From NCBI GenBank assembly GCA_037893245.1, contig JBAIAA010000074.1:2108001-2172000 (forward strand): a stretch of DNA of 64,000 nucleotides, given 5' to 3'. The translations under genes were made by a program, and so were the position numbers. This document shows, piece by piece, positions 194 to 31,900 of the stretch. The notes beneath the pieces are model-generated. The model did not search any database. It saw only the letters and a program-made list of their open reading frames with translations, and was not told the origin of the DNA. Each line of letters starts with the position of its first letter. Position 1 is the stretch's first letter. The stretch is from Crossaster papposus. Lineage: Eukaryota > Echinodermata > Asteroidea > Velatida > Solasteridae.

Positions 194-412
194 AATGTGT
201 GGTGTACTCAGAAAAGGTAGTGTACAGGGTGGTATTCAAGACTATAACGAGTCCCTGCAAGTCAATCGCAAGTCCTCCAGTCTCTGGGATACTTTTAGTC
301 ATTTCATGCTACTGAAACTGAAGTTGAACACTGTCCTGATGAGCCACATTGGCTCAGGACAAACCAGCTTTGCTTGCTTTGTTTGAAATATGTATCCTTT
401 TTTGTGCATCAG

Positions 413-5812: not shown

Positions 5813-8800
5813 TTACGTTCGACAGCAGAAGGAGACACTGCTGTGGTCTCGTATAGGATCCTCCAGCTGAGCATTCTTGATGTCCGAGTTGCGGACGTTG
5901 TTGGTCAGCTCCACGGCAATGTCCATGAACAGCTTCTCCACGTTGTCCGATTCCTTGGCCGAGGTTTCCAGTAGCCGCATGTCGTGGCTGTCGGCAAAGG
6001 TCTCTGCTTCTTCATTGGCGACCTCCCGGTCTGAGGCAAGGTCAATTTTGTTGCCTGCAACAAACAAACAAAAATCCAACAAAACAAATTATAACTGTTC
6101 GCATGGAGAGTTTTTTGCCCCAAAGCGGCATTCATTTCAGCCACGGATTCAGGATTTTCCAAGGGAGATACATCTGTCCTGCCAACAGGGAAAATATTAC
6201 CTATAACCCTGCTGGCATCGGTGATGTATCAATGAAATTATGAGTGAAATTTCAAAACGAAAATCCCACTGCTGGTGCGTAAATACTTTTGCATGCCAGT
6301 GCACATGTACATACGTTGCATTTACAGGTGTACACAGCTGTAGTAACATACAACATACACATTGATTTAGTAGTACATGTATATGGTATACAGGAAAGTT
6401 CCTAAGCTTCAGTCCTCCAAAATCAATCTACATTTCATAGGCCATACTACCTCACTCATCCAGAATCAACCAGAAATTCCTTGGGCCCACACAAAACCTC
6501 AATCCTTTAGAATCAACCAATAACTCTCTGGGTCATGTAACCTCAATCCTTTAAAATCAGCCAGAACTCTGAAATTTGTTACTGTGCGTATAACCTCAAT
6601 CATTCAAAATCATCTAAACCAAAACTGCTTGGTTGATTTTGGTTGAGTGAGGAAGGTTAGGGTTAACTTACAAATGCTACATCAAAAATCTGCCCCTACA
6701 TTTGGTCACTCACCAACTAACACTGAGATGACTTTGGGGCTGGCGTACTGCTCTACCTCCTTGAGCCAGCTTGGCAAGGCGTTGAAGCTCTCGGTGGACG
6801 TGACGTCAAAGACCAGGACCAACGCATCAGCACTGTGGTAGTAGCTCTGTGTGATGGATCGGAACCGCTCCTGGCCGGCCGTGTCCCATATCTGAAGCTG
6901 GTTAAGCCAAAAACAAACAAATAAACAAATAAATAAACGGAGAAACCATCGTGCAAGCTATTCTACAAAGCAACTGGGGCCAATTTCATTGAGCTGCTTA
7001 GCACAATAGTTTGCTTAGCATAGAAAAGTCTGGCTCAGTAAAAACAGCTTATCAGCTAAAACTCCATGTGCTTTTCTTGCTAAGCAAAAATCCGCTGAAT
7101 CAGTCACAAACAATATACACCACCTTAAAATTTGGTTTGTATCCCTGTTTTTCCCGAGAAAGAATTTTCATGCTAAGCCATTTTTTTGTGCTTGTACAGG
7201 CCTCGACCTTAAGAAAAAAAGGGGCAGGCCACTTTGGCCTCATCAACACCAAAATTTCAAAGGGCACCGAGGCCAACTGACGGGGCACCGAGGCCAACTT
7301 ATTTCCAAGTATTTAATTCATTATTTTTGCATAGTACGTATACACGTGTAACTAAGGATGTGAATCTACGTTTAATTTTGTAAACGTTTAGCAAACCTTT
7401 CCCGTAACGTTTAAACGTTTAAACGTTTATTGAAAACTTTAAAAGGCTGCCGCCTGTCCCGGTCTATTTGCGTAACTGCGGTCGCGTTTGTTTGTATACA
7501 TTGTGTACACTTAACACCATTTTTTTCTATGTTCTTTGAAGGCTAAACATTTCAAGAAGCATCACCTGCAAGTGCTGTCAAATCAAGTGCCACTTCAAGG
7601 AATGTCCAGACTAGCCTTAGGAAGATCGTTTATTTATTTATTTTTTAGCTACGATTAAAAAAAAAAAATTAAAAAAAAATTAAAAAAACCGTTACCCTCA
7701 CGAATTTCGCGATAGCTGCAGCATTCCAGCGAGTACTGCTGGTATACCGGTAATTTCCTACAGCCAGGCCATGAGAACAAAAACCAATCATTCATAACCT
7801 TTCCCCATTAGACTTCTGGCTACGCGCCACGGGCAGGGAGCGAAATTATTTTCCCCACTATGGGAAAGGGTAAATGGGCGTTTCTACACCCCTCGCGTCA
7901 TGATTATTCAGTAGTTTCAACAATAATACTAAAATATATTGTTATTGCTCAGTCAACTAGTTACACGTAGGCCAGAGGTACATTAAAGCACTTAGAAAAA
8001 CGGCTTCTGTCGACCTCTCCCAGTAGCCAAGTAGATAATGGGTTAGGTCATAGATCGTAAGATTGGGGTTCTAGTTCGGATGGTGCTCATTTTTCATTGA
8101 CTATTTTTGGATTGTAAGTTTATTGTGGGATGAGTTTAATTTGAGGGGAAGCAAGGTTCTAAGAACCTAAGTGTCTTCCATTCAGTGTGGTCTAGACACG
8201 CCCAGTTATGATAATTGGCCTTTACCATGTTGGGAAAAAAAATCACGCGGGCAGGGAAGCCTCGTATTTCCAAGCAACAGGGTTTGGGAGTCACAATACC
8301 AATGCGCCTAAACATTTCAGAGTAGAGAAGGAACTGCAACCAATGGCATTTTATTTACTGGGATTAAAAGCTTTGGCGGACGTCCTCAAAGTTCGGTGAC
8401 CTACATTGTGCACGTTGTGCCGCGCCCCTGAAGTTCGGTGACCTAGTACATTTATCTACTGAACGCCACGTCCTCAAAGTTCGGTCACCTTGTAAATATG
8501 TTTGTATAAACAAGAGATATAATGTATCAATTTGGACAATGGGGCTGTCAATCATTCTCTGGAGCCTGGAGAAATATTCTTTTGGGGGCCCAGATTATTT
8601 TTAAGACTGGGGAAACCTTAAACTGTATCGGAAAAAAAAGAGAAACATATTTTCCAGCAGATGATAGAAACATTTTAACAATTTTCTTAAATAAGTATAC
8701 AATTCTTTTCGAACCACAATATTGTTTACGGGGGAGATGTCGCAGAATCGTCAATGATGATTAAATAGTCGACATCAATTTGGATAGAAATAAATACAGG

Positions 8801-11800: not shown

Positions 11801-13830
11801 TGCGTCCACATCATCAGACATCAGCGCGGCATCGTCGGCGTATGCAAGGGCAGGAATTTTTACGGCCATCCATCGCGCCGATAGACGTCTTTTCACCGTG
11901 TACCCATCTTCAAGAACGAGCGACGTGCGTAGGATGTAATCCATGACGATGACAAACAAATAGGGTGCTAAGGTATCTCCCTGGAGTACACCAGATGTTG
12001 TTGCAAACTCGTCAGTGCAGCCCGAAGATGTGCGCACGCATGCGGCTGTGTTGGTGTACAGTGCCATTATTGCGTTTATGAAAGCTGTGGGTATGCCATA
12101 GAATGATAGAATCTCTCTCATGGCACCACGGTCAACGCAGTCAAAAGCTTTGGAGAAATCCACGAAGGTTATTACCATACTCCGCTTCCTGGAGCGACAC
12201 GCATCAATCGCCATTCGTAGACATGTGATTTGTTCGACAGTGTTACGATTAGTCTGGACCTGGTAGGACTACAGGGTTAGGGTTGTCTTTTTGGTTGTTC
12301 TCTTTCAGTGCTTACCATGAATTACAATGTTTTTTAAAGAAGGCTTAATGGCCATTCTCGCAGTCAGACATCCGGGAACCTTGTTTATCTTCCTAGGGGG
12401 AACATTTGATGTTAATGCATGTTGCTATCGATGGGCTGCCCCTTCGTGACATAATGCCGACCTTGAGAATAGCCTTATAGTTTAATACATAACCTTACCT
12501 TTACTTTTTCTCCACCAATTTCCACAGTTTTGATCATAAAGTCAACACCGATAGTGGCACCCTGGCCAGGGGGAAATAAGCCCTGTTAAAAATAAAAATA
12601 AAATCAATATTTTCAGTAAAAGCACAAGACACTTGTTCCCCTGAAAAAACAGTCCCATCATCTTAACATCATACATGGTGTTGGGGGTGTTAGGGTTGAG
12701 GGGGTGTGGGGGGTGGTAGGGTGTAGGGGGGTGTGTTAGAGTGTAGGGGGGTGTTAGAGTGTAGGGGGGTGTTAGAGTGTAGGGGGGTGTTAGAGTGTAG
12801 GGGGGTGTTAGAGTGTAGGGGGGTGTTAGAGTGTAGGGGGGTGTTAGAGTGTAGGGGGGTGTTAGAGTGTAGGGGGGTGTTAGAGTGTAGGGGGGTGTTA
12901 GAGTGTAGGGGGGTGTTAGAGTGTAGGAGGGAGGTGTTAGAGTGTAGGGGGGGGGGAGGTGTTAGAGTGTAGGGGGGGGTGTTAGAGTGGGGGGGGGGGT
13001 GTTAGAGTGTAGGGGGGGGTGTTAGAGTGTAGGGGGGGGGGGGGGGGTGTTAGAGTGTAGGGGGGTGTTAGAGTGTAGGGGGGTGTTAGAGTGTAGGGGG
13101 GTGTTAGAGTGTAGGGGGGGTTAGAGTGTAGGGGGGTGTTAGAGTGTAGGGGGGGGGGGGGGGGGGTAGTGTATGGTGCATGTGCCCTTTGGCAAGGCAC
13201 TTTGTCACTCATTGCTTCTCTCCACCCAGGAGTAAATGGGTACCTGTGAGGGCAGAGATGGTTATTGTGGTTGATTTAGCTGCTTTGCGCCGAAATGGCA
13301 GCATTGAGCTGTATACTCCCCAGGGAGCTGAGATGGTATTTGGAATGTTTTGTGGGCCCAATGACCGGGGTAATATTAATAGGGTTAAGCGCTTTGAGAC
13401 AGTTGGTGATAAAGCACTATATAAGCACCGCACATTATTATTATTATTGGAAGGGGGAAAGGGGGTGTTGGTAGAGGAGAGGTTGAATGGGAGGCAGGGG
13501 GTGTTGGATGGGAGGGGGTGTTGAAGGGGGGGGGGGGGTGTTGGAAAGAGGAAGGGGGAGGGTTGTGGGGGAGGGGGGAGGAGGGAGGGTTGTCTGGGGA
13601 GGGGGTGGGTTGTGGGAGGGGGGGAGGGTGGGGGGAGAGGGGTTGGGGAGGGGGGAGGGCCGAAGAATTGACAGTTGTAAGGCATCTTAAAATGACACAT
13701 GTACACTCCTTTGTAAGCAAGGGAAAGCTTTCAATTTGCCTACCTGTGTAAACCGTCTGACCAGACATGTTTTGCCCACACCAGCATTGCCGATGAGTAC
13801 CACCTTAAACAGGTACTTGTAGTCTTCCAT
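5813..13830 (-). CDS. RAB30: RAB30 small GTPase (complete, four coding exons)
   Basis: Coding exons on the minus strand are 13744-13830, 12499-12582, 6714-6897 and 5813-6054. They join in frame with GT-AG borders to give 198 aa. The protein starts MEDYKYLFKVVLIG and has the P-loop GNAGVGKT (residues 14-21), an effector loop FPPGQGATIGVDF, WDTAGQE (61-67), NKID (120-123), ETSAK (148-152) and a C-terminal Cys pair (195-196) for geranylgeranylation. Human RAB30 shares FPPGQGATIGVDFMIKTVE, ITQSYY, SAKESDNVEKLF and a Cys pair four or five residues from its end, which separates it from other Rabs. RAB30 acts at the Golgi in membrane traffic and Golgi organisation. The gene lies head to head with PCF11. 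The 5.6 kb third intron holds nested transposons. A 5' UTR intron is possible because an acceptor-like accag lies just before the start codon. Confidence 0.93.
8382..8490 (+). repeat. direct repeats of aagttcggtgacct
   Basis: Three copies of a 14-base phrase (caaagttcggtgacct and variants) occur within about 110 bases inside the hAT-like element. Two of them are preceded by acgtcctc. They may be internal amplification within the element. Confidence 0.7.
9237..9327. repeat. near-perfect palindrome, arms about 45 bases
   Basis: The sequence cagcagctggcgtattgaaa and so on up to acacatgtgcacatgtgt reads back as its reverse complement to aatacgccgctgctggg. It can form a long hairpin. It lies inside the hAT-like element at 7353-9651 and may itself be a small foldback insertion. 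Confidence 0.85.
9960..10021 (+). repeat. tandem repeat of cttttaattaactgt, about four units
   Basis: Four successive units of about 15 bases built on cttttaattaact. The repeat lies inside the outer hAT-like element. Confidence 0.8.
10050..10152. mobile_element. small foldback element, copy 1
   Basis: The segment gggccgtttgccaaacccca is answered at 10129-10152 by its approximate inverse (tggggttttgaaaacgggcc). A second, better preserved copy lies at 10279-10393. Confidence 0.6.
10279..10393. mobile_element. small foldback element, copy 2
   Basis: The left end atgaagccgttttccaaacc and right end ggtttcggaaaacggcttcat are inverted and separated by about 70 bases. The internal phrase tttggcaatgg is shared with copy 1 at 10050-10152. 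Confidence 0.7.
11030..12249 (-). mobile_element. 5'-truncated non-LTR retrotransposon (LINE)
   Basis: The element lies in RAB30 intron 3, in the same orientation as the gene. A 12-base direct repeat tagtctggacct flanks it (11018-11029 and 12250-12261), as expected for target-primed reverse transcription. Its coding part is described separately. Only the C-terminal half of the polymerase and a short 3' tail remain. Confidence 0.75.
11087..12214 (-). CDS. LINE reverse transcriptase, C-terminal portion
   Basis: This frame of about 375 aa lacks internal stops. It shows the core reverse transcriptase blocks in order: FVDFSKAFDCVDR (first catalytic Asp), GVLQGDTLAPYLF, the YADD active site, LNASKTKVVYI and FCYLG. 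A later LRLIGHALRRP thumb/tail segment is common in LINE polymerases. The start is arbitrary: upstream, codons for VQTNRNTVEQI continue the domain until the truncation point near 12250. There is no endonuclease domain. The clade is uncertain (RTE-, Rex- or CR1-related). An intact remaining frame suggests a fairly young insertion. Confidence 0.85.
   Translation of the reverse strand: MAIDACRSRKRSMVITFVDFSKAFDCVDRGAMREILSFYGIPTAFINAIMALYTNTAACVRTSSGCTDEFATTSGVLQGDTLAPYLFVIVMDYILRTSLVLEDGYTVKRRLSARWMAVKIPALAYADDAALMSDDVDAAQRQLHRFEAASAKVGLRLNASKTKVVYIGDIQHNAICTTAGVTLAACDDFCYLGCNVAYSRSAIQRRRQLAWVAARKCTLVWDGAASDSAKVHLFKSTVETVLLYSCDALAITETMARHLDATHRALLRYCLGVHFPVRLSNVDLYARTCVAPATTTLLRSRLRLIGHALRRPEVPLAVFLNPKNQPSEPFRRGGGLRRTYLLQIIDDLNVIGLKHDQAVRAAQDRAGWLRRILRI
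12690..13166 (+). repeat. G-rich minisatellite, unit gtgttagagtgtagggggg
   Basis: About 25 tandem units of 17-20 bases of the type ggtgttagagtgtaggggg run through RAB30 intron 1. The G-run length varies between units, up to about 17 G. It ends directly against a SINE. It is read by RAB30 as C-rich RNA. There are no unique spacers, so it is not a CRISPR array. Confidence 0.95.
13167..13449 (+). mobile_element. Deu-like SINE, copy 1 (5'-truncated)
   Basis: The sequence ggcaaggcactttgtcactc, later cacccaggagtaaatgggta, gctttgcgccgaaatggcag and agcactatataagcaccgca recurs at 32336-32590 and, in part, at 48412-48690. It ends in a (tta)n tail. The aaatgggta core resembles the Deu domain of deuterostome SINEs. 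The 3' end resembles the LINE tail at 60030-60078. Confidence 0.75.
13450..13668 (+). repeat. irregular G-rich tract
   Basis: Irregular runs of ggagggggg and ggggtgttgga fill this part of RAB30 intron 1. It gives proline-rich translations on the other strand, which are artefacts. Confidence 0.85.
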
Positions 13831-15803
13831 TGTGATTGGCTGGTCTTAGTGCAGACACTAAATATGGATCTCAGAGATCCTTACAAATCTGTTATTCCTG
13901 TGAAAAAGACAGGGAATTACATCAGCATATGGGTAGGGGTGTTTATTTAGCCTTGATAAATGCTGTGCAATTTCACTCAAGCAGTATCAGGGTTAGTCTG
14001 GACAACTTACTAGTCGGGACCCAGACATGGGTGTTGTTCTGGCCCAGACCAACACACAGGACAGAGACAGCCCAGGTCAGGACAGAGAGAACTTCAAGTT
14101 ACAATACTAAGAGTTCTAGTCAACTTTGGATTACCTTTTCTGACATTTAGTTATGATCACCCAATCAAACAAAACTGTTGAAAAAAAACAATTTACAGAA
14201 TCGAACATGAATAAAATGGACACATGCAGACAAAACTAAATATTTCTTGTGTCTTCAGTCGTACACTATATTTGTGGGCCATGAAATGTGGCTAGTTACT
14301 GCACTGGACTCTGTGCCCTGGCCATACATAAATTTGTACATCAAACATTCATACATGTATACATGGAAATGAACAAAAAGTTACCAAAAAACTGTTGGCT
14401 TGATAATTCCACACATAATTTCTTCTTCTGGTGCAATTTCCCTCTTAATTATTTTGGTTTCAAACTCAAAGCTGTCTAATAATAGCTGTTTTAACCGAAA
14501 ATTAAGAGGCAAATTTTACCAACACGAGAAATCAGGCAATATTCGCGACAAAAGTCATGAATATTGACGCCAAATTTGACGTCAAATATCACGACCGGAC
14601 ATAAATTTTGACGCAAATGTTTTCCCAGCAAGCTATATTTTGGCTAGTTTTGCTCCAAGACCGAGTTTTTCATTTGTTCGTGACTTTCGGGAAAAGTCGT
14701 GAAATGTGACGCGAATATCGACGTCAAATTTCACGTCAATATTTGCGACTTTTGGGGAAAATCGTGAAATTTGACGTCAATATTATTGGCGATTTAATTG
14801 TCTTTGGGGAAAGTCGTGAAATTTGTCGCAAATATTGACGTCAATATTTACGATATATGTGTCCCTCTAGGGCCATCATAGTCATGATAGTGTGGAGCCA
14901 TGAAGGCGTGATTATTCATGGCTAAAAATATATTGCATTTTCAACTTTTGCAAAATTTGTTGGCGCGCCGTCCATGCTCATCATGATGCTGCAGTCATGC
15001 GCTGGCGCGGCAACGTGGATGGCAGTTTCAACACGAGATTGTTGCTTGCTTGATGAACAGCTGTCCTGGAGAGCCAGCTTACCATCATTTTTGCACCGTG
15101 ACATAAAACAGTTGTGTTGTTAACTGACTGAACATTAACGTTACGCGCACACGTCGTGTGATTAAAATGGCATAAGACCATTGTTGCAACACACGAGGCG
15201 CAATGTCAGAATTTGTTGTTTTTCTTGCAGGCAAAACTTCCCGGAAGTTGTAATGGATCTGGCGCGCTCATTGCTTTCTGGGAAATAAAAATAGTGACTT
15301 CATTATCACGTGATAGACAACGCGCCGACGTACGTACGTACATGCGCGCGATAAAACAAGGTTATTTGTGACGACTTTAAAGAAAACAAAATTTGATTGG
15401 TTAATTTAATGCAACGTTTTATGAATAAGTAGTAATAAAATAGAGTTGAAATAAAAGTAAAAACAAGTTAATGTCTTTAATGTAATTTATTTTAAGTTGT
15501 TTGTTATTGTTTGTATTTAATTCATCAGAAAATAAGATAAATGTATTCTCCATTGCAAATTTGTTTGAATAGTAATTGTCCAATCACGAATCGCGTAGCA
15601 TTGCCTCTGCCCTCCCCGCACCTAGCTAGCTGCTGCGTAATAAAACAAAATTGACTGATTTTTTTCGTTGAGTGGCGTGGTTCAGCCACTCGACGTCCAC
15701 CATATTTTTTGAAATTTTGTGTATTTAAAAAAAAGATTGCTGTTTCCCCACATATTGAGCCGTTTCTCGCCACTTCATAGCCTACGATCATCAGGTTTTC
15801 ATT
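13831..15803. promoter_or_regulatory. divergent RAB30/PCF11 promoter region
   Basis: This 1.97 kb lies between the start codons of two genes that are transcribed away from each other. It must contain both promoters and 5' UTRs, unless a 5' exon lies elsewhere. A CpG-containing stretch at 15240-15350 (with cacgtg and tandem acgt) is the best candidate core near PCF11. No TATA box is obvious. The middle (14520-14850) holds a degenerate repeat rich in tgacgtca. Confidence 0.6.
14520..14850. repeat. degenerate repeat with CRE-like tgacgtca sites
   Basis: Variants of gtgaaatttgacgtcaatat recur in both orientations. The palindrome TGACGTCA is present perfectly at 14577-14584, 14772-14779 and 14836-14843, with a one-base variant at 14719. 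It is the consensus site of CREB/ATF factors. Whether this is a regulatory array or just a foldback repeat cannot be told from sequence alone. Confidence 0.6.
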
Positions 15804-18800
15804 ATGGCGGAGGCGGTAAAACGAGAGTACGAGGCGTCGTTGTCCGACTTGTCTTTCAACAGTAAACCGCTGATCAACATGTTGACGATGCTGGCCGAAG
15901 AAAACGTGAAATATGCGAAGCAAATCGTTGAAGTCATCGAATCCCGACTGCATAAGGTTACTTGATTTGAATAGATCACGTCTATATTAATTCTAGAATA
16001 ATAATTTTGTAATATCTGCACATTTGGCGCTTTGTATTATGATGAAATTTGTAGGGATATTCGTTCGGTTTCTGTGTAGAAAAAAAATCAATATGGCGAC
16101 TAGTATCACTTGTCTATGTGGGCGCCCTTCATCTTTTTCATAGTTTTTCACTTAATTTTTGTTTAATGTCCTAATTAAACAGTATACATGAAGATAATTA
16201 AAATATTTATCACATTAAACGTTTTATGAAATAAACATGATAGGGCCTATTTTGTAATTCAGGTTCTCACTCAAAATTTGTTTTCCCTTTGGGGGCGGGG
16301 GAGGGGGGGGGGGGGGGGGGGGGTAGTAGTAGTAGTTAGGATAGGACTAGGAGGGGGGAGGGATTGAGTTGTTGCAAACTTGTCCTTGCAGTGATCATGA
16401 TTTAAACAAACCGATTAATATCGAATGTTTAGAAAGAATAACTCATTGCACATGTTGCATGCAGGGGCTGATAAAGACTAGTTCACACAACACAAGGCCA
16501 CTGTCATGACTGTTTGGCTTCAGAAATAATACCTATACATGTACTGCATTGTAAATTGCATTGTACTCCGACATCTTGTCCTACCTTTACCATTATTTTA
16601 CAATTTAAGATGTTGACAGGCGTATAAATGGCACTTGGCAGATGTGTTTTCAACATTTTGAGAAATATTTGGATAATAAAAAGTGATGCTGCTTGATCGA
16701 GTGTGGCTGATGTGTTCATTTAAAATGTCAGAGTGCGTCTGAATAGAAATTAAATGATTTGTTGCCGTGCTGATTTAATACGGGTGCTTCAGGCATGCAA
16801 CTTTTCACGTCACACAATATGCCATTATAAATTTGAGAATGTTCTGGTAAATGTTGCAATAAATTTCCTCCGTTTTTTAATTTTATTTCAAGTTGCGTGC
16901 CTGGTGCTCAAATTGTTAAAAATCTGGATAAATAATGTATACATCATGTACTGTTCAGTATTAAAAGGTAATATATTGGCCAAACCAATTTCAACTCAGA
17001 AATTGTAAAAATGTTTGCACAAATAATACTGTATGATCATAAAATCAAGCCATCCATGTTGACAATGTCTGTTTTTATGGTAACGATTCAAGTATACAAT
17101 GTACTTGCCTCTGAAAATGACGACGAGCCCGGTTTCTCCTCTCTGCAATTGTTGCCGTCTTCGCGTGAAAACAGTACATTTTCCCACATCTCCGTAATTA
17201 AAAATAATGATAGAATCAAGAACTGGATCCTGTACTAGCCGCAATTGCCTGCGTGGTACTTGTGGACATATTGACTGTGTGCCTTCTTTAATGTTGCAGA
17301 CTGCAGTGCTAAGATCCTTTGAAAGACGGAGACTTCGCGAGTGAAAAGTCGGGGGGGAAAAAGAAAAAAAATGTTTGCGGAACTTTTCCCCCCATAAGAT
17401 TCTAAACTTTGTCTCCTGTCTAAGTCTTAGCACTGCTTGATTTGTTTTCATTTTTTGGGTTAATGTGTAAGGAGTGCGCGCTGCTTATTTGAAGTGAACG
17501 AATATGAACCATATAGGGCAATCTTATCGCAAACTTTAGTTCTGTAAGGGAGGCGTTACTAGTGAGCTGCTGAGGTGTGGAGTGCAAGTTCAACCCCTCC
17601 CCCCTTGATGGACGACTGAAGACACCTTTATGTCTGCTTTTCCAAGAGCGAGATGAAGCAGGAGTCCTGATTCATCAGCTGGGAACATCTGGAAGAGGGA
17701 ATGTGCCGTCAGGTTCACCAAACTGCCAGATACCCCATCCCCCCCAAAAAAGTATTGATCGATTCATTTGAAAATATTGAATAGTCGGGTACCTCTGGCG
17801 AGAGGTTGAGTCACTCGGACGAAACCGCTCTGAATAGCGGCAATTTGTAAGAGAGGTTTAATCGGGCTTGCCTTTCATTGCGTTACATATGTTACAATGG
17901 GCCATCAAGGAATAAGGTTTGAAATTTAGAAAGGACTTGCACCTCTTGAATGTTACTGTCAAAATGGTTTGAAATGTAACCTAGGTGAATTTGTATAAAG
18001 GTTTTGTGAAGCGCCTTTGGAATTCTTGCAGAAATGCTGGATTTCCCTAAGGTCGGGATTTACTGCATACACATACGTATAGATATTCCTTCGCAGGTGT
18101 GCTTTGCCCAGAGTGTGCAACAAATTGTCTGATTTGTTTTCTTCCAAATTAACAGAAGTGGCATTTACATAGCCCTATAAACAGGACTGTAAATGGCTCT
18201 TAAATTGATCTTATTACTGGATGTAATGGCGACGGTAATGACTGATGTTACTTAAAAGAGCAATTTACAGCCCTGTTTGTAGAGCTTGTCCCAAAGCTGC
18301 GCACTTGGTCAGTATTTGCAGTTAAGAGGGGTCTTGGAACATATAAGCAAAATGTGATTCAGTTCCTTGAATTTGTAAGAGAAGATTGATCCAAGATGTT
18401 CTTAAAAAGAGAATTAGAAAAAGCCGGTAAACTAAACTTTCCATCATTTTGTAAGACTAGGTGGCTATAAATTCAATGGCTTCAGATGAGAAATGTACAT
18501 CTACCTAATCATCAGAATGTATCATCTGATTGAGAAGAGACATGTAACTGGTGTGAATAATAAGGGATTTAATTTTGCAAAGTTGTCTCTTGGCATTAAG
18601 TAAGCATTGAAATTGTTGTATTATGAGAAAAATATGCAAATTGTAGCTGTTTTGGTTTGTGTCTGTTCTTATTAACACTAATCTCAAATTGGTTTTGTCT
18701 CCAACTTTTTTTTCCCAGCATCTTCAGTCTCGATACAATTTCCAAAATTTGAAAAGTTTTACGTTTTTACTAATTTGTTAAAAAGAAAAGTCTTTTTAGT

Positions 18801-20499
18801 TGTCATAAAAAAGAAAAGGACAAATGTAGACTTTTATCAATTGTTTTGATAAAAATGTGTCGGATAAAATAGGTCTTATATGAATAACCATTTGTGTATT
18901 TTCTTTGATGCAGGATACAAGAAATTATTTATACCACCACTGTACACAAGTCACTTTCACACTTTGAAAGAAAAAGTCACAACAAAATAACAATTCATCT
19001 TGCAAATTCTGGCCAAGTCCAAGAAAGATGTCAAGACCTCTTAAGATTGATTTGAGTTGCAATTTTTTGTAAAAAGTGAAAAGAAATTGACTTGCGCTAA
19101 ATTGTGTGCTAATTAATGTCAAGTCTTCATAGTTAAAGTTAGCATACACCATTGGTAATTGCTTGAATTATCATGAATGGATGAATTTGGGGGGTTGTAT
19201 TTTATAGTAAATATTGATTAACTGACCTCTCTGATGTTTTACAATCATAGATGCCAAGAAAAGCACGAAAAACAGCGTTTGTTTTCAACCGACGTTTTTT
19301 CGCCATCGCCATCCGGCGATTGCGAATTTTTCTTTATAAAATATATTTTTCTGAATACATGTAATTACAGTATATCTAGCGCAATCATTTTGCTAGATGC
19401 CTAGAATCATTATTTACTTTCAAATAAGTAAGATATTTCTTAATAATTCGGTAGTAAATATTTACGATATTTGCAAATGGTGTATCCTACCTTTAAAAAA
19501 GTGAAAAGCTCGACTTTGACTGCAAAAAGAAAGTATGGTTGTGAGAAATGGTGGTGTCGGATTCTTTTAAGTTTTCAAAATCAGTAGATGAAAACGAGGT
19601 AAACAAATTGGGCAGAATAACTTCTCCCTAACTCAATAAGCCTGTGTGTTGATGATGTCACACTTTGTTTACCGAACTGGCTCCCATAACAAAAGCGCAT
19701 GTGTAAACAAAATGTGACGTCATCGGTACACTACAGAGACTTATATCACCATGTCCATTACTCTGTTTTAGCCACTTACACCGCGAGATCAATTTGGATG
19801 ACGCAACTCCCATCAATCAAGGACTTGACGCTTATTGACTTAGGAACTGTTTTTCCATTTCCCTACGTTTGACTACGATTATTTTTACAAAGTGGTCAAA
19901 AATTCTTTTAAGAAGTGTGAGAGGGGCTTGACCATTTCTTCCTCCCACTTCGTCTGTGCAGGCCAAACCCTCGGAAAAACTACCAGTCCTGTATCTCGTG
20001 GATTCTATCATCAAGAACATGAAGGGTGCTTATCTCGAAGCATTTACCCCGAATATCGTACAGACATTCTGTGGTGTGTTTGAAAAGGTTAGACACCTGT
20101 AGCAACTTACAGTTAGTGTAAATTTCTTTGGTAAAGTTTAAATTATTTAAAGCATCTTTTAAACTTCAGGACAGGAACGATTTTTGTGTTAAAAAAAAAG
20201 AGGGAAAAAAAACCTAGATGTGACTGTGTTGTACAAGATTTGTTTACAGTTCTGTAATTTAGTTTATATTTATTGATAAGTAATTGTATTTTTTTAATGA
20301 GCCGAGTTTTTGATGTGTTGTAAAATAAAGTGATTGTATTTTAATGTTTATAAAGTCTAATGAGATAGGGAAGTGGGTAGTGTTTAGACGTACCTGTACC
20401 TCATGAAGATTTTCTTTATTCTGTGATTCCTTGAAATTAAATTGTTTGTATCTTTGTACAAGTTGTCAATAAAACAGGCCCCCAAACTTACCCCCTACC

Positions 20500-20535
<36 letters not shown>

Positions 20536-22896
20536 GACGGTGTTATTTGATCCCATTTAAGTTGATAAAGTGGCTGATTCTATATATTTTTGTTCATTTT
20601 TTCCAAAGCAAGGCCCCCCCTTCTGTTGTCCCACTTTTACTTTTGAGCTCCGATTAATCCCTGTAGGCACTCTTGAGATTCTTGCTGGGTACCTATTTAG
20701 CATTCTCTGATATCGAAGACCCTTTCCTTAAACATCCCGACCTAACTCCCACATCCACAAGGTTACATTTCCAGTGCTTGGCTTACATTTTCGAGATGAA
20801 GAAAATTAAGTACTGGCAGACTTTTCGTTTTAATTTTTTTTTTTCATTTCAGAATATAATTTTGAACTTGGACCTTCATTGAAAAAAAAAAAAATTTGTC
20901 CCTTGGCCTTAACAAATGTCTTGATCTCGCGTGACTAACCGTTACAAGAAAAAAAATGCGGGCCGATTTCACACGAACAAAAAAGATCAATCTCAGTAAG
21001 ACTATTTCGTCCTAACTTGCATTCGATCAATTGCATACTCTTTCTAAGTTTGATCTTAGCATTGCTGAAATTGGCCCCAGACCCCAACTTTAACAAACAA
21101 ATTGTTAAGTAACTCAAGAGGAAGCCTTTAAAGATCGGAGAAAACAAAATAAACTGCCCTTAAACTATCGGCTTCCTGAAAAAAAAGTTTATGACAATTG
21201 TACAAAGATGACCACATTTAACACCACGTTAACCTTCACCGATTTGCCCATTGTGTGAATGAATGCCAGGTTGATGAAAAAACTAGACAGTCCCTTTTCA
21301 AACTGCGGATGACATGGGCCAGCTACTACAATCCCAAGAAGCTGTACGCCTTGGACCTCAAGGTTAAGGAGTTAGACCCGGCCTGGCCTGTTGTTGCTGT
21401 CCCCACCGCCGCCCAGCCTGCAGCGATACACGTCAACCCCAAGTTTATTAAAAAGGTGAGTTACTTTCCTTTTTGAATTTTGATAAAGTTTTAAAGGGAA
21501 AAGTTTTAAAATGTATTTAAAACAAAAAATTCCACCGCCCAATTATTTGTGTGTACTATACTCCTGATCCTTCCCCTACTTGGCTTTTAAGAATGATAAA
21601 AAAGACATTCTGGGGTGGAGCCAATTGACTGCTTTGAACCAAAACATTGTGTGTTGTGTAAGTGAGGCATCGGGATGCTGACAACCACTCACTGATAACT
21701 TGTACCTTGGCAACTCCTCCCTGTTCCACACCCCCTACTCGCCCCTTCACCCCCCCAAAAAAAATAAAAAAATAATAATTTATATATTAAATATATATTT
21801 AAAATATTCTTGTTATTTAACCATTTTACTAAGGATTCATCAACTGCGTTAATCTCATTAATCCAGATTGAGAAAATCTAAATAATCCAGTTACCCCAAA
21901 ACTCTAGGCCAGTATTGGCTGCACCCAAGACATCCCAGCCAGCCACTATCACTGCCATCTGATATTGAAATAATCTTATTAATCCAGTTGCTCTTTTCCC
22001 CAACCCCAAAAGTCCCAAACCAATGCCGCACCCAAGACATCCCAGCCAGCCACTGCTGCCACCACCCCGCCCACCGATGCCCCGCCCAACACTGGCACCA
22101 CCACCAGCAGCGTACAGCTGACAGCGGAGGAGCTGATCGATCAGAAGAAGAAAGAGAGTGAGAGGCAGGAGATGGAGATGCGGCAGCAGCTGATCAAGAA
22201 GCAGGAGCAACTACTGGACCTGCAGAGGAAGCGGCTGGAGTTTGAGCTCCAGCAGACCCAGAGCAAGCTGGAGATACAGGTCGGTATTCGCTATCACTCA
22301 GTTTCCAGTTCTGAAAAAAAAGTTTGATGCAGTTGGACTCAGAAAGGGGTCCCTACAACTTTCTTCCAAAAATCAAGTGTCGCAGTTGCACATAAGTTAG
22401 TGCCTATAAGTCTGACATGGGTGCACTTCCAGGTTCTTCCCACGCACTGCGCGTGGATCTTGACTTTAATATGCCCAACTTCAAGTGTAACTTACTTGAA
22501 ACTTACTTGAATTGTTTTTTTCTTCTATTTTCTTAGATTTTATTTTCTATCCCTTGTCTTTGTCTTGCCCTCACTGCTAGTGGCGCTTCTCATAAACAAT
22601 TCAAACAAAAAACTTATATACGCACAGTTGAACTATTTTAGGTTTTTGCTAGTTGATATACACTGTACTTGTTCCTTCAGCAAATGCAAGGTGACAATTG
22701 TAATTTTTATTTCATTATCTAAGCTTTCTTCTGAACTAAATTTATATTTATTCCTCCTTTTTTAAAAAAGGCTCTTGAGCTCAAGCAGAAAAATGAGCAG
22801 TTGCTACTCCAGCAGCAAGTCCTTCAACATCAGAAATCCCTTCAACAGCAGGAATCCCAAAAACAACAACAGCAACAGCAGCAGCAGCAGCAGCAT

Positions 22897-22944
<48 letters not shown>

Positions 22945-25900
22945 GCAGCTGCAGCAGCAGCTGCAGTAACTTGGCCAGTCGTTTCAGGCCCTCCTCAGCC
23001 ACTACCTCTCATGTGGTCAGGCGGACCGCCACCCATGCTGCCCGGCCACAATGGACCCCCGATGCACATGTCTCATCACGACCTGTCTAGTATGATGCCC
23101 ATTCACAACCAACAGCAACTGCCGCAGCAGCAAGTTTATTTGCCGCCACCACCAGTGCCGCCATTCAGTTTAGTTGGTCCTCCGGTTGCATCGCCCATGC
23201 AACCCACACCGCCCATGCAGCCCGTTCTCCCCATGCAGCAAGTACCACTAGCCCAACAGGTGAGAGGTGGCTGAAGATTTTGCTTAAGAATTTGCTGAAT
23301 TATTCAAGTCAAGCACAGCATTATTAATTTCATTAATTATGGTGGCCTGTCATTATAGCTGTTGACAAATTTTGCCCAATGGTTGCCAATTTCTAACCAG
23401 TAGAGTTGTTTTATTCAAAAACTCGGCACTTCACTCATTTTGAACTTGTATTACTATTAGCCCTTGTTTGCTTTAAGTCCTTTAAGTGTTTTCTGCTCAG
23501 GAACTTTGTGGAACTTAAAAACAATATTAAGAAGTTTTATCTTTTATTTGGCTGTTCGAGAAGTCATTTATACAATTTTGCATTTACTTAAGAAGTTTCA
23601 ATAAGAAGTGTTAAAATATGATGTAATTATAACTTGCTCTCTGGTATGGATTTTTTAATAAGTGTAAAAATGCCTTGATTTATATCACAACTATTTAAAT
23701 ATAAAATCTTTTTGTTCTGGTTTTTGATGTCTAGGGGCTAAAGGCTGCACCAGTTACCCGCGACCCTCGCATTGCTCGTGATCCCAGACTTGCTCGTCGT
23801 GATCCAAGGATCCGTGGTGTTGCAGATGCCACCCCTGCAACATTTGCATCTGCACCTCATCAGGTTGCCCCAGCTGTAGCCACTGTACCCCCCGTCCAAA
23901 GCACAGCACAGCCACCTGCTATTGCAGTAGCAAATCCACCGTCCGTGCCGCCGGCTACCTCAAATAACACCTCACAGGCCACTTCTTATCTGCAACTGAA
24001 AAGTGTGGTCACTGTTGCGCCATCGTTGCCTAGCTTCAAACCAACTTCCAAGTTTCCAACCAAAGGAAATTTTGCTAAAGACATTAAAGCAACAGACACA
24101 AAGCAGCAAGCTGAACAGAAACGAGAAACAAAGCCTGACAATAAGCCAAGTGACAAGAAAGACACCAAATCGGAGCCTAAGCCAAAAGAGACCAAAGCAA
24201 CAGAGTCAAAATCAGAGGGCCAGAAGTCCAAAACAGAAGGAGTTTCCAAACAAGATAAAACAAAGGACGTAAAATCCATTGATCGATCACCGCGCCGTTC
24301 GAGTGACGAGAAGAGGGACTGCAGAAGCGACAGCAAAAGCAGAGACTCTAGAAATTCCCGGGAACCAGAGCGAAGGGCCAGCAGGGACTCCAAGAAGGAC
24401 TTTGATAAAAGAGAAAGCTGGTCCAGCAGGGAACGGGATAACCGGGAACGAGATCGCGACTACCATGACCGACCCAAGAACAGAGTTGGGGTCACCAGGG
24501 AACCGTCTAGGCTCGCGAGTTCCAGGCACAGATCCAACAGGTCACGCTCTAGGTCAAGATCACCAGTTTCTAGGTCACGCTCGCCACGAGGATCTGATAA
24601 GAGTCGCACAACTTCACGTGCTCCCCCAAAGGTGGACAAATTTGGAAGAGATTTGCCTCGCCCTGTCAAAGAAATCGAGGAGGAAAAGAAACTAGAATCT
24701 GCTTCCGATGTTCACAAGAAAGAAGATGACAGCCGCAAGAAAGACACTGATGAAAGTTGCAAGAAAGACATTGACGAAAGGGTGAAATTGCGACGTAGTA
24801 GTAAAGAAAATGTGCCAGATATTAGAGAGGAGAATAAACTGAATCAGGGAAAATCCGAGAAAAGAAGGTCACCTTCTACTGATAAGGAAACTGACAAAGA
24901 GACCGAGTCAAATGTAGAGGCACCTAGTAAGCGTCCACGGTTGGATGAAAAAATGCCACCAGACAAGGCACCACCTTCCAAAAAGTAAGTCTGAACTTAG
25001 TGGAATTTGTTGAAACCTTACAAGTCTGCAGCAAGGTTTGGTTTGAAATTTTGTTAAGTGTGTGATTTTCACACAATGTATTTTTTGTACATTTTTCTTT
25101 TAATTAGAGAGCCTGAGATGAAAGAACAGAACAATCAGCAAAAAGAGAAAAAGCCCAAAGAAGTGGACAAACTAGACGTTAAGCTCCCTAAACCGCGACC
25201 ACTGATGGAACTTTCACCGCCATGCCTCTCTGTTGAGCCTGGTGGCCGGAGGAAAGCCCATTCTCACCCGCGTGATCAACTGGAGTATGAGAATGAAATG
25301 ATGTCCCCTCCTGGAGGCTGGAGGGAAAAACCACCATCCAGACGAAGACTCAGCATTGACCCAAATGTCCACATTCCAAAGGAGTTGTCCCTGGAAAAGC
25401 ATGCCTTCATCTTAGAGCAGGTATGGCAGAGGTCAAATAACAAAATTGCCCTTGAGAACAAATCGGGCTTGTCTGCTGTCATTTCTTCCTCTATGAAAAC
25501 ATAGTGGTGTTTCTAATTATCAACTTGACTACCAACCAGTCTTTTGCCATATTTTTTTTGAGAATTTTATGTTGTTGAACCAGTTGGCGCAGGATGACGT
25601 ATATAAACGCAAAGTTTTCCCCAAATTCAAAACGGATGACGCATAAACACGCCAAGTTCAAGTTCGGAAATGTCTGTCAGCAGCGAACAAGGCTGGAAAG
25701 GCGTGGGTGTGCTTCCCGGCACTATCGGCCTGAACCCGCTTCGGATCGAGTTTTGTTAAAAATAATCCCGCCCCTTGGCTTGGTGATGGTGATAATCACG
25801 GCGTGAACTGGTTGAAGAACCTGTACTGTTAAACAAATTAAAATTTTAGTTAATTTTAGGTATTAATTTAGTTTATTTGTATATTACAATACAGGTTTTT

Positions 25901-28900
25901 AATGATAGTTTTTTTAAACAAGACTTTCTTGAAACACTCTTGTTTTAATGCAGGCTGAAAAGCAACTCCATTCTGGTGAGTTGACCCACCAGCAACATCA
26001 AGATCTATTGCGTGAGCTGTTTGAGCTGCACCAACTCCAAAAACAACAGAAGGATGATGAGTACATGCAGCAACACACCCATGATCCACATTTTAGAAGG
26101 CACAGCCCGGACGATCCAAAAACGCACCATCACCCGAGATGGCTTACAGACCCCAGACAAGGTGGATTGTGGCCCCAAGAAAAGGACGTTGACCACAGGA
26201 GGTCATCTGCTCAGGATGTTGACATGAGAGTCTTTGACCCTGCACACCCAGTGCATGCTGTCATGTCCAAGTCTAGAAGCGAGGACTCTGCTAAATCGGG
26301 TGCAAAACCACATTCTGATGTACAGTTGAATCTGCCCAGTGTTGACCAGGATGAAAGGACAAGGAACCTTGTCCACAAGGATCGTGATGACAGAGTAAGA
26401 GGCCCGCCAGCTGAGAAACAGATTGTGCTCCCGCCACGTCCTCTCAAGTCAATTTTAAAAACAGGAAAGGCAGTACCTCTTGAGAGTCCCTTGTCACCAG
26501 AGCCCGAGGACAAATGTGGTAATGATGCAGTGACCAAAACGGTTGTTGAAGGGACTCTAGAAAAAGCCAATCTTTTTGAAAAGGAAGACAAACCTGCAAC
26601 GGTGTCTACAGACAAAGTGTTTCCTGCCTTAGATGAGAATAAGACCACTGCATTAGAAGTCATTATAATAAAGGACACCATTGTGGCTGAAAAGGGTAAA
26701 GGCAAGAAGAAAAACAAGAAGAAGAAAAAGAAAGGCTCAGGTAGTGAAGCCGAGGTCCATGTTGAAGTCACTGCTTTTGAAGAGAGTCTAGAAATAAAAC
26801 CCCCTGTTTTCAATGAGAAGAAAATCCAACCTCTGATGGACATGGATGAACGTCGAAACACAACAGATGAGCCAGCTCATGTGCTTCCTGCTCCATTCAG
26901 AGAAGCAGATGATTTGGAGGACTTATTCCCAGCTGGGAAAGATCGTGATGAGCGTCAGGGTCCAGGGCATCAGGCCAATCAAGAGAGTGAAAGAGGCAGA
27001 ATGCAACCAAGAGAAAGTCCTCCTGGAGATGGTTCTTCGAGGGATAGTCATTCGAGGGATGGTCCTTACAAGGAGGGCATACACAGGGATCATCCACCAG
27101 GAATGGATCAAATCAGAGAAAGCCACATAAGAGATCCAAGACTTCGTAAAAGTCCTGAAATGGAACCAATGGATATGCCCCCAAGACCAGGTCCATTAAG
27201 AGATGGTAGCTTGGGAGATTACCCCTCAAGGGATACATATCGAGAATCTTTGCCTAGAGGTCGCCCATACATGGACCAATATCCTGCTGAACTATCTAGA
27301 GAGGGTGCTTTCAGAGATAGACCACCTGGGGAAAGACCTTTCCGAGACGGACCCCCAAGGGAATATTTATTAAGAGGAAGCCCTCCCAGGGATATGCCTT
27401 TTAGGGATGATCCACCAAGAGAAGACCCACCAAGAGGTCCACTAAGAGGTCTACTAAGAGAAGGGCCACCGAGAGAAGGTCCACCAAGAGAAGGTCCACC
27501 AAGAGAAGGTCTGCCCAGAGAAGGTCCGCCCAGAGAAGTTCCACCAAGAGAAGGTCTGCCAAGAGAAGGTCCACAAAGAGATGGTCCACCAAGAGGTCTA
27601 CCAAGAGAAGGTCAACTGTGGGGAGGTCCAAGAGATGGTCCATTTGAAAAGGGTTTCCCAAGAGAAGGCTTCTTCAGAGATGAACATGGTCGAGAACGTC
27701 CTCTTAGAGACGGTCATCCAGGAGAAGGTCCATTCAGAGATGGACCAGCAAGGAAAGGTCCTTTTAGAGAGGGCCCTCCAGAATGGAATCCATATGAGGA
27801 TGACAGACCAAGAGACGAAACTTTGAGAGGTCATCCAAGGGAAGGCTTATTCAGAGAAGGCCATCCAAGACATGGCCCGATTAGGGATGATTTGTTTAGA
27901 GCTGGTCCCGCAAGAGAAGTTATACTGCGAGATGACCCTCGAAGAGAGGGTCCCTTTAGAGAAAGTCCACCTCCAGATGGACTGTTCAGAGATGGGTTAC
28001 CTAGAGATGGTTCCTTTAATAGAAGGGTTCCGAGAGATGGCCCATTCAGGGAGGGTCCATTCAGGGATGGCCCACCGAGGGGTAGCCCACCAAGAGAAGG
28101 TTCTTTCAGAGATATTCCATCAGGAGATGAGCCGTTCAGAGGACGCCTTCCACCTAATGAAAGATCATTTAGAGAAGACCAAATCAGGAAAGGTCTTCCG
28201 TTGGAAGGTCCCCTGTTCGAAAGTCTACACAGGGATGGTCCACTCAGGGATGGTCCACTCAGGGAAGGTCCTCCGTTTGAAGGTCCACTCAGAGAGAGCT
28301 CTTTTAGAGATGGCCATCCGAGAGATGCTTCCTTCAGAAGAAGCCCACCAAGAGGTGAAGCGTTTAGAGAAGGCCCTCCTAGACTGTTACCAAGAGATGG
28401 CCCTCGTAGAGATTTTAAGGAAGATTGGGACCCAAGACATGTCCCTCAACGTGATCCACATGATCCACGTGGTCCTCTGCATGAGCTCAGAGAAGAAAGA
28501 TATCCTGTATATCCCAAGGAGATGCAACCAAGAAATTTACCAGTGGAATTCCTCGAAGAAGCCCCATTGCCAATGGAGAGATTTAGAGGTCCACCTAGAG
28601 GAGGACCTGCTCCCGAAGAACCTGGAACACTGTCCCAAACTACAGACGGGGATGAGCGCCTCTCTCAACTGAAGGACCAAAAGTATGTTACTGCTTGCAC
28701 CTACTTACACTGCTTATACCTGCACAAAAAATACACGGAAAAGTTGACACTATTTTAATTATATTGCAAATTATGTTTTGAGGTTTCAGCTTCTGCTAAT
28801 ATTTTGCCCAATTTGCCTTGACAGATCTGTGGAGCCTTCACCAGTATCCCTGCCAGTGGAGATTCATGACCAACCACCGTCTTCTACAGCACCCTTAGTG

Positions 28901-31900
28901 TCTGTGCCTCAATTTGGGGCTCAACGCCCGCCATCCATGAATCCTGCGTCAAATCTTCATCCAGGCCTCGGAGGTCCCAACCTTGGCATGGTTCCCATTC
29001 TTGCGCCGGGAACCCACTTCTTCAACCCCAGGCAGCCGGGAGTAATGATGATGGCCAACCCTGGCCAGCCGAGGCCCCCCATGCTCATGCGTGGAATGCA
29101 GGCCCAAGGCATGAGGCAAGAACTGCTGTTGGATCAAAGAGGTTTCCCTCAACCTGCTCGTGGGATGCCCTATCCTGCTCTGATGGGTGCACCGCACCTC
29201 ATCCGTCCAGAAAATCCTCAAGGTAATTATTATTAAATTCAATATCCAATGCTTTATTACTGCTTACAGTTAAATCGTTGCATACCTAAAATAGTGCAGA
29301 GGAGAAGAGAAAAATGCCATTTTTGTATTAGCCTTTTAGAATCTAAAACAATTTTTAGAAAAAAGGATGAGTTGGAAGTCCTCTGAAACCTTAGACATAT
29401 ACCGTAATTTCCTGCGGTAAAGCCGCACGGCGGATAAGGCGCAGGTCCCTAAAATCACCCAAAAAAAATTCAAACGCCAACAGATAAGGCGCACTGCCGA
29501 ATAAGGCGCATGCTTGAACGCACCCAAAAGAACACCAGGCGCCACCCGGTGTAGGTACATCGCCAGAAAGGGGTCATTTTGTTGCCTTAGAACGATCCCA
29601 CTATTCCAAGCATGAATTAAACCGTAACCCCATGGGCTGGTCCCATGAAGAAAAAATCCAAAGTACCTTTAATTATCCATCCAGCCAAAGCTAGCTGTGC
29701 GTGATTGCGGTTTCTGACCCTGCAATGGTGCGTCTTTTTCCAAAAGAAATAAGGTTCAATGAACTAAAACCATTGAGTGAGCTGACACGAAATGTATCAA
29801 CAATCGCAAACACCAGATGTTCCTGACCGCAGAGTTTATACAATGGAAGCCGATACACGTGCCTCTCCCACAGATATCGGGTTTCAAAACCACGTTTAAT
29901 GTTTTGGTCCGTGGGATTATAAATTAATTCAGTACCGGTAGTACCGGTAAGTTCAGTCAGTCAGTGATTATAGTTTCTTTCCAGACAACGTAATCAGACA
30001 ACATAGAGTTGACTTAATATATGGAAGGGATTTTTAGAGGGGATTTGTTTTTAAATAAAGTTCTTTTCCTTTATTTCAAACCTATAATTTGTTAATCACG
30101 TTCATAAGATATTTGTTTAATACATCACTACTCTTAGTGTTAGTTTTGTTTTGAAGATCATTAAACTTATTTAATATCTTACAAATAAAATAAACGAAAC
30201 AGACACATGAACCATCTCTTTTCCCGTTTGGTCGTCCTGATAAGGACGGTTTGTTTTGTTGGACTCTTCAACATTTATTGGAAGCTATATGTCAGGTGGC
30301 TTATTGAGGGCGCCCTTAATTATCGCCAGATTCGTATAGGGGAACGATTATGGCGAAATAAATCAATTCGCTCGAGAAATACATTGACAAACGCCTTTTA
30401 AATAAATTAAATAACTGCCAGGCGAGGGTTAGTGTAAGTAAATACAATGTATCTTTGTTGGAGATGAGCGGGCCGGGACAACATTTATTGAGAAGCAGTT
30501 TGTGTTGAGAGAACGTCAACACCCAATGGTAATGAAGATTTTTTTAACTGGACTTCAGGGTTGGATAACGATTTTGTCACTGGGGAAGTAGTGAGCGGTG
30601 CTGAGGGCTTTGATGTTGGTCTTTTCAAGAAACTTGGTCGGCTCATCACTCAGTCACCCTGAATAATAAGATAATATTACGTTAAATTCTTATAATACTT
30701 TCTCAAACAAACATCTAAAATGAAGATATAATAAAACACCCTCAACGTTCACACAATAGAGGTTGGGTGAATGCGAATTCCAAACGTTTAAGTAATTCTG
30801 TTGCAGCATTTTCGGAATGAAAGAAAACGGCCAGAAAGAAAAAGGGGGTCGACACATTGCGGCATTGTTGGAATAAAAGCACGGTCGTGGGGGGGGGGGG
30901 GGGGGAATCAACACATCGTGGCATTGTTGGAGGGTAAGCACATTCATAGGGGATCAACACATCACGGCATTGTTAGAATGGAAACACGGTCACAATGTCC
31001 GAAGAGTTGAGCTAATTGGTTGACCGCATTATTGAGTAAGATTACGGCGTTCAAAGAATTCTTCACACAAAGACCGTCACTTTGAAATCAAGCGACATCA
31101 TATAAGGCGCACCGAAAGATAAGGCGCGGCGATGTTTTTGTGGTCTAGAAAGTCAGATAAGCCGCGGCTTTACCGCAGGAAATTACGGTAGGTGGACTAA
31201 AATTGTATTGTATAGATCTCGGTTTATTTGGACCAGTCAGTGCGAAACTGTCAAGGCTAACCTTGCCAACATTTCTAAAGGCAGGTTCTTGGATTTAACC
31301 TGACTGAAGCTTGTTTAATTCACCCTATGCCTGGACAGGTACACCACCCCCTCAGCCAGCAGGACCCTTTGACATCAATTCGCTCTTTGCCAAGCTGGTG
31401 GCCACGGGGATTCTACCGCCCACTAGAAGCGACTCGCCAGTGGTACAGGTAAATAATCGCAAGACACTTTCCATTCCAAAAGGTGCATTGTCGGCACTTG
31501 TAAGTTGAGAGAACCTATCAGAAACCGTAAAACAAATTCTGCATGGTAGAGATTTGAAACTAAAGCATTTTACAAATTACCACTGGACTCCTGAATTTTA
31601 CAAATATTGATTGATCACACTGAAACTGCTTAGTAATGGGCTCAATTATCCCTTTTGACATATAATTGTTTTATAAGTTCAACTTCGGGATTGACATTCC
31701 GGTATTTTACAACTTGAGCTATCCAGCCCTATGTTAACAGACCATCTTTTTTGTCAATGTATCTTTGTTTGGGGGCACTCGTCAAAGGCCGAAAACAATT
31801 GGGGATCACTCTGAGAAAATTCTTCTTTTTACTTACAACTTTTCAAATAAACCTCGAGGGGAACTATCGAGGAGCATTATGATTATTGTTTTAAAAGTTG

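What the first reader, a model, noticed from the sequence alone, without database searches (positions are those of the whole stretch)
13744..15956. RAB30 and PCF11 lie head to head, as in human
RAB30 exon 1 (minus strand) and PCF11 exon 1 (plus strand) start 1.97 kb apart and diverge. From what I know of human 11q14, RAB30 and PCF11 are adjacent and divergent there too. Keeping two functionally unrelated genes in this arrangement across deuterostomes suggests a shared, constrained bidirectional promoter. PCF11 sets transcription termination, so the neighbour gene could report on its regulation.
Basis: partly seen in the sequence, partly recalled or inferred. Interest (0 to 1): 0.7.

Follow-up and report, generated by a model that had tools for sequence, protein, structure and literature searches.

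The report
Ancient divergent RAB30–PCF11 gene pair
In this echinoderm genome two unrelated genes sit back to back as they appear to do in mammals and may start from one shared stretch of promoter DNA, which is an inherited neighbourhood of an ordinary kind rather than proof of a promoter conserved from echinoderms to humans.

Summary
RAB30 (minus) and PCF11 (plus) are adjacent and divergent, start codons 1,973 bp apart. Human Rab-30 is the best solved match of the one, the Pcf11 CID of the other. Mitochondrial code and gene order point to an echinoderm. Published passages fit adjacency in mammals.

One correction: 13744-13897 is probably not RAB30's first exon. It has a top-scoring 3' splice site and lies in CpG-poor DNA, so RAB30 likely begins with an untranslated exon nearer PCF11, inside a CpG-retaining block at about 14.9-16.2 kb. 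Starts under 1 kb apart are likely, not shown.

A compact shared promoter is plausible here, but not one constrained across deuterostomes: the human promoters lie tens of kb apart (recalled; a SNP called intergenic between them), and 339 bp of the gap here is a high-copy repeat.

Unasked-for lead: PCF11 intron 1 opens with four clustered poly(A) hexamers behind a weak splice donor, the anatomy of vertebrate PAS1 autoregulation.

The parts
13744..13897 (-). RAB30 first coding exon (start codon A at 13830; probably the second exon of the gene)
   Evidence: acceptor score 9.0, in-frame TAA upstream; CpG o/e 0.28
12499..12582 (-). RAB30 coding exon B
6714..6897 (-). RAB30 coding exon C (Ras domain)
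5813..6054 (-). RAB30 last coding exon, stop codon ending at 5813, C terminus CCRT
15083..15220 (-). putative RAB30 5' untranslated exon (3' edge set by the best donor in the gap; 5' edge guessed)
   Evidence: last exon base 15083, score 8.8, best of five donors scoring 5 or more; inferred, no transcript
14549..14887 (.). high-copy repeat inside the gap
   Evidence: every listed match other than the locus itself falls on this part of the query (254 matches counted, not all listed); internal 50-nt direct and inverted repeats
14888..16200 (.). CpG-retaining block spanning both presumed starts
   Evidence: o/e 1.27 (14888-15803) and 1.59 (15804-16200) against 0.19-0.55 at 13744-14548 and 0.49 at 16201-17000
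15236..15248 (.). ETS/GABP-type palindrome ACTTCCCGGAAGT (motif name recalled)
   Evidence: only match in the window with up to 1 mismatch, 0.03 expected
15306..15313 (.). E-box palindrome TCACGTGA
   Evidence: five in the window against 0.60 expected, the other four at 55.4-56.4 kb
15804..15956 (+). PCF11 exon 1, coding part (start of CID), weak donor AAGGTTACT
16174..16235 (+). four clustered poly(A) hexamers in PCF11 intron 1 (ATTAAA three times, then AATAAA)
19962..20087 (+). PCF11 exon 2 (CID)
21270..21452 (+). PCF11 exon 3 (end of CID); both edges approximate, the acceptor scores only -2.4
21983..37800 (+). rest of PCF11 as I read it from open frames; exon edges not worked out, 3' limit inferred
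   Evidence: zinc finger at 35152-35412 over cut-off, Clp1-interaction match at 32955-33293 below it; the frames at 25933-28758 and 36160-37800 match no Pfam family

Best explanation
This is the echinoderm copy of an old divergent gene neighbourhood, RAB30 on one strand and PCF11 on the other, inherited from at least the common ancestor of echinoderms and mammals. Shown: the genes, their orientation and the start-codon spacing. Inferred: RAB30 begins with an untranslated exon near 15.1-15.2 kb, so that both genes start inside one CpG-retaining, presumably unmethylated block (about 14.9-16.2 kb) with transcription starts well under 1 kb apart. The block then works as two back-to-back core promoters in one open region, with general activators such as an ETS/GABP factor in the middle loading polymerase in both directions. 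PCF11 output is set separately, by premature polyadenylation in its first intron. The pair stays together in animals mainly by descent and slow rearrangement; the compact promoter is a local state, not the thing conserved.
For: RAB30: human Rab-30 4.1e-87, 294 bits, against 199.6 bits for the next Rab. PCF11: yeast Pcf11 CID 4.3e-19 against RPRD1A 1.2e-10, Pfam CID, PCFS4 zinc finger; the zebrafish first exon quoted in PMC6458999 (REYQSSLEDLTFNSKP) resembles REYEASLSDLSFNSKP here; 3 of 3 CID matches are this locus. Mammalian neighbours. Upstream RAB30 exon: 3 of 3248 minus-strand AG sites reach the acceptor score, and these are RAB30 exons A, B and D; in-frame stop; CpG o/e 0.28 in exon A and 0.19 at 13898-14300, but 1.00, 1.61 and 1.59 at 14888-15300, 15301-15803 and 15804-16200. 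ETS palindrome unique, 0.03 expected; GABP is over-represented at human head-to-head pairs (PMC4089025, passages). Sea urchin methylomes are mosaic (PMC8291442, passages).
Against: No transcript ends were available. RAB30's body as a whole has o/e 0.73, hardly lower than the window's 0.74. CpG-rich 1-kb windows are not rare: 67 of 413 in 104 kb reach 1.0 and 20 reach 1.2. The assumed RAB30 leader holds six ATGs in about 204 nt. Donors of 8.8 or more occur 0.31 times per kb on this strand, so one in 1.9 kb is not striking. A GLA/NAGA-like and an MMAA-like gene nearby are also head to head, 2,270 bp between candidate start codons, with o/e 0.22-0.75 over the starts and 0.94-1.07 in mid-gap, so the geometry alone is ordinary.
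Confidence: 0.55

Rival explanations
1. A single bidirectional promoter has been under constraint throughout deuterostomes and is what keeps the two genes together.
For: Pair is divergent here and fits adjacency in horse, cat and human; promoter-like block here.
Against: Human starts are tens of kb apart (recalled; a SNP called intergenic between the genes) with a lncRNA promoter named there. Here 339 bp of the 1,973-bp gap is a high-copy repeat.
Confidence: 0.1
2. Neutral retention: the genes are neighbours only because nothing broke them apart; each has its own independent promoter and nothing is shared, here or in vertebrates.
For: Geometry is ordinary (neighbouring head-to-head pair); flanking genes here do not match the mammalian ones; microsynteny may reflect low recombination or rearrangement (PMC8851819 and PMC5722932 passages); TpG/CpA excess at 14888-15300.
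Against: One CpG-retaining block covers the gap up to PCF11 and there is none at RAB30's coding start.
Confidence: 0.3
3. Regulatory-block retention: long-range elements of one gene lie in or beyond the other and lock the pair.
For: A recognised cause of conserved pairs (PMC8851819 and PMC5722932 passages).
Against: Neither gene is a developmental target of the usual kind (inference); conserved non-coding sequence could not be tested, no relatives held.
Confidence: 0.05

Closest known systems
Conserved metazoan microsyntenic gene groups (PMC8851819, passages; Irimia 2012 seen only as a citation)
   Same: Functionally unrelated genes adjacent in an echinoderm and, by the passages, in mammals
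   Different: Only two genes, where that study speaks of blocks of at least three; flanks here (GLA/NAGA-like, MMAA-like, GT29 sialyltransferase, GPCR) are not the mammalian ones named
Human divergently paired genes, starts under 1 kb (PMC12672016, PMC4089025, passages)
   Same: Divergent, one CpG-retaining block, ETS/GABP-type site in the gap
   Different: Start distance here is inferred; the same pair in human is not within 1 kb (recalled)
Vertebrate PCF11 PAS1 autoregulation (PMC6458999, passages)
   Same: Clustered poly(A) hexamers in intron 1 of PCF11; intron 4.0 kb here, about 3 kb in human; short read-through extension (two residues here)
   Different: Sequence anatomy only; tandem AATAAA in vertebrates, three ATTAAA and one AATAAA here; use not shown
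CstF-77 intron 3 poly(A) site with weak 5' splice site (PMC3708835, passages)
   Same: Weak donor ahead of an intronic poly(A) signal in a 3'-processing gene
   Different: Different gene and intron; a 33.2-kb intron there

Membership tests
RAB30 | Closest to human Rab-30 among solved Rabs, by a clear margin | tested here: met
   294 against 199.6 bits; no tree was built
RAB30 | C-terminal double cysteine for prenylation (recalled) | tested here: met
   ends SFCCRT
PCF11 | N-terminal CID closest to Pcf11 | tested here: met
PCF11 | Clp1-interaction region and C-terminal zinc finger | tested here: inconclusive
   zinc finger over cut-off (31.4 against 27 bits); Clp1-interaction 21.7, below the cut-off of 24
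Conserved microsyntenic pair | Same two genes adjacent in distant clades | tested here: met
   adjacent in this window; mammals only through passages that fit adjacency; no other invertebrate checked
Conserved microsyntenic pair | Same relative orientation in the other clade | not testable with these tools
   divergent orientation in human is recalled
Bidirectional promoter pair | Transcription starts under 1 kb apart | tested here: inconclusive
   start codons 1,973 bp apart; upstream RAB30 exon inferred
Bidirectional promoter pair | Both transcripts depend on the shared stretch | not testable with these tools
   needs reporter or deletion
PCF11 PAS1 autoregulation | Tandem poly(A) signals in intron 1 | tested here: met
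   four in 62 bp; shuffles reach four in 100 bp in 1.45% of 2000 anywhere in the intron, 0.05% within its first 400 nt (that cut chosen after seeing them); total count not raised, 9 against 8.7
PCF11 PAS1 autoregulation | Site used, and used less when PCF11 falls | not testable with these tools
   needs 3' end sequencing

The most novel reading that the evidence does not exclude
PCF11's premature-termination feedback, reported in human, mouse and zebrafish, is older than vertebrates: echinoderm PCF11 carries its own PAS1, just past a weak first splice site, beside the same open block from which RAB30 is divergently transcribed, so that a change in PCF11 level alters early termination in one direction of a shared promoter while RAB30 in the other direction serves as the untouched reference.
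Probability: 0.3. Interest if true: 0.55.

Novelty: new member of a known kind. Interest (0 to 1): 0.3.

Why it matters
It adds one echinoderm example to the gene neighbourhoods kept since early animals (one study infers 256 new blocks at the bilaterian and 162 at the cnidarian-bilaterian ancestor, passages of PMC8851819), and suggests that a divergent pair can lose a compact promoter without the genes parting. The intron-1 hexamer cluster makes a concrete test of whether PCF11 autoregulation predates vertebrates.

Tried and rejected
Rejected: reading the 1.97 kb as a distance between transcription starts. Led nowhere: ATGGCGG sites (YY1-like, recalled), 17 in the window against 13.3 expected, 13 of 100 shuffles as many; RNA families, 0 matches at gathering score in 5000-40000; a second haplotype copy of the gap, none among the listed matches (which scored 40 of 1891 candidates); a published statement of the pair outside mammals (wider searches on divergent pairs and microsynteny). 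Against my PAS1 lead: the total of poly(A) hexamers in intron 1 is not raised, 9 against 8.7 expected, only their clustering; two other clusters of four occur in the 104 kb on both strands; donors scoring 4.1 or better occur 5.2 times per kb (minus strand). The acceptor model is crude: other acceptors in use here by my gene models score 4.9, 6.8 and -2.4.

Papers: only passages returned by term searches were read of PMC7143816, PMC3543264, PMC7449002, PMC6976565, PMC11411778, PMC4526524, PMC6458999, PMC8851819, PMC5722932, PMC12512555, PMC4792925, PMC12672016, PMC3708835, PMC4089025 and PMC8291442; others were seen in listings alone. Human gene coordinates and orientation, splice-site weights, mitochondrial gene order by phylum and motif names are recalled.

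Full report
Source. The window is C74:2108001-2172000 of a 1.02-Gb, 1841-contig assembly. The small contig C1841 holds a COX1 frame with 13 TGA codons under the standard code; under the echinoderm and flatworm code AAA becomes Asn at places I recall as conserved, such as STNHKDIG. Frames that I read as ND4L and COX2 follow COX1 in that order, which I recall as typical of echinoderms; no family search was made on them. I take the source to be an echinoderm; class and species were not determined.

Genes. RAB30 on the minus strand has four coding exons, coding parts 13744-13830, 12499-12582, 6714-6897 and 5813-6054, giving 198 residues. Its best solved match is human Rab-30 at 294 bits, the next Rab 199.6 bits; no tree was built. 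PCF11 on the plus strand starts at 15804; exons 1 to 3 make a CID that matches yeast Pcf11 at 4.3e-19 and RPRD1A at 1.2e-10. Further on lie a sub-threshold Clp1-interaction match and a zinc finger over its cut-off; two long frames at 25933-28758 and 36160-37800 match no Pfam family, so the 3' limit near 37.8 kb is my reading. In the assembly the CID gives 3 matches, all at this locus.

Neighbourhood. To the left lie a GLA/NAGA-like gene (minus; alpha-galactosidase matches) and an MMAA-like gene (plus; MeaB match in L014, and, below cut-off, at window 299-721). To the right a GT29 sialyltransferase exon and a GPCR, both minus. Mammals have CCDC90B, ANKRD42, PCF11, RAB30 together (horse) and a list running ANKRD42, PCF11, RAB30, PRCP (cat). 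So, as far as recognised, only the pair is shared. Human adjacency is supported by a SNP called intergenic and labelled PCF11, RAB30 (11:82,821,382). From memory the human genes lie near 82.69-82.78 and 82.87 Mb of GRCh37, divergent, about 85 kb between starts, with RAB30-AS1 (now RAB30-DT) between; the papers seen show only that this lncRNA has a named promoter.

Where RAB30 starts. The exon with the start codon is preceded by TTCCCTGTCTTTTTCACAG; 3 of 3248 minus-strand AG sites scored in 64 kb reach its 9.0, and RAB30 exons A, B and D, at 9.0, 9.5 and 9.1, are those three. RAB30 exon C scores 4.9 and PCF11 exons 2 and 3 score 6.8 and -2.4, so the model ranks crudely. An in-frame TAA lies six codons upstream. 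CpG o/e is 0.28 in that exon, 0.19 in the next 403 bp and 0.55 at 14301-14548; then 1.81 in the repeat, 1.00 at 14888-15300, 1.61 at 15301-15803, 1.59 at 15804-16200, and 0.49 at 16201-17000. In animals with mosaic methylation such retained CpG suggests unmethylated 5' regions (inference; sea urchin methylomes are mosaic). The best donor in the gap ends at 15083 (8.8). I infer an untranslated first exon there. Against: TpG/CpA at 14888-15300 is 1.56, a sign of past CpG loss, where 15301-16200 has 0.99-1.11; RAB30's body as a whole is hardly more CpG-poor than the window, 0.73 and 0.74; donors of that strength occur 0.31 per kb; the assumed leader has six ATGs.

The gap. 14549-14887 is a high-copy repeat (254 matches counted, 40 of 1891 candidates scored, listing cut) made of roughly 50-nt direct and inverted units. 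The rest holds one perfect ETS palindrome at 15236 (0.03 expected in the window) and an E-box palindrome at 15306. GABP is over-represented at human head-to-head pairs. CpG-rich windows are not rare: 67 of 413 reach 1.0, those at 69-72 kb lying on a repeat array of the right flank.

A control pair. The GLA/NAGA-like and MMAA-like genes are also head to head, 2,270 bp between candidate start codons, with o/e 0.22-0.75 over the starts and 0.94-1.07 at L014:4001-4750 in mid-gap. Both start codons are my reading; the frame with the MMAA start matches no Pfam family. Head-to-head spacing near 2 kb thus looks ordinary here.

PCF11 intron 1. Vertebrate PCF11 carries tandem AATAAA signals in its first intron and limits itself through them (passages). 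Guided by that, I looked at intron 1 here (15957-19961). Its number of AATAAA and ATTAAA hexamers is as expected (9 against 8.7), but four lie within 62 bp, at +218 to +279 of the intron; of 2000 shuffles 1.45% reach four in 100 bp anywhere in the intron and 0.05% within its first 400 nt, a cut chosen after seeing the data. Two other clusters of four occur in 104 kb, both strands. The donor of exon 1 is weak, AAGGTTACT, 4.1 against 8.4-11.2 for three RAB30 donors, recalling the weak donor of the CstF-77 intronic site. This is anatomy, not use.

Verdict. The pair is real and, by the mammalian passages, old. The shared-promoter idea is plausible for this genome and not supported as a deuterostome-wide constraint. 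Interest is modest; the intron-1 lead is worth a direct test.

Noticed in passing
G000 contig C8, positions 2872001-2873343 and 5208663-5210009: COX1-family matches in open frames without stops on a multi-megabase contig look bacterial, so the assembly may include a symbiont or contaminant chromosome.
   Followed up: no
11087-12268, minus strand: Reverse transcriptase open frame of 393 residues inside a RAB30 intron (Pfam RVT_1 8.4e-23); non-LTR type is my guess.
   Followed up: partly
14549-14887: High-copy repeat of about 50-nt direct and inverted units, CpG o/e 1.81; 254 matching pieces counted in the genome.
   Followed up: partly
12680-13170: Minisatellite of GTTAGAGTGTAGGGGGGT-like units in a RAB30 intron, with long G runs on one strand.
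   Followed up: no
L014:3489 (minus) and L014:5760 (plus): A second head-to-head pair, GLA/NAGA-like and MMAA-like, 2,270 bp between candidate start codons.
   Followed up: partly
55445-56355: Four copies of TCACGTGA, close to ATGTGACGTCAC-like repeats.
   Followed up: no
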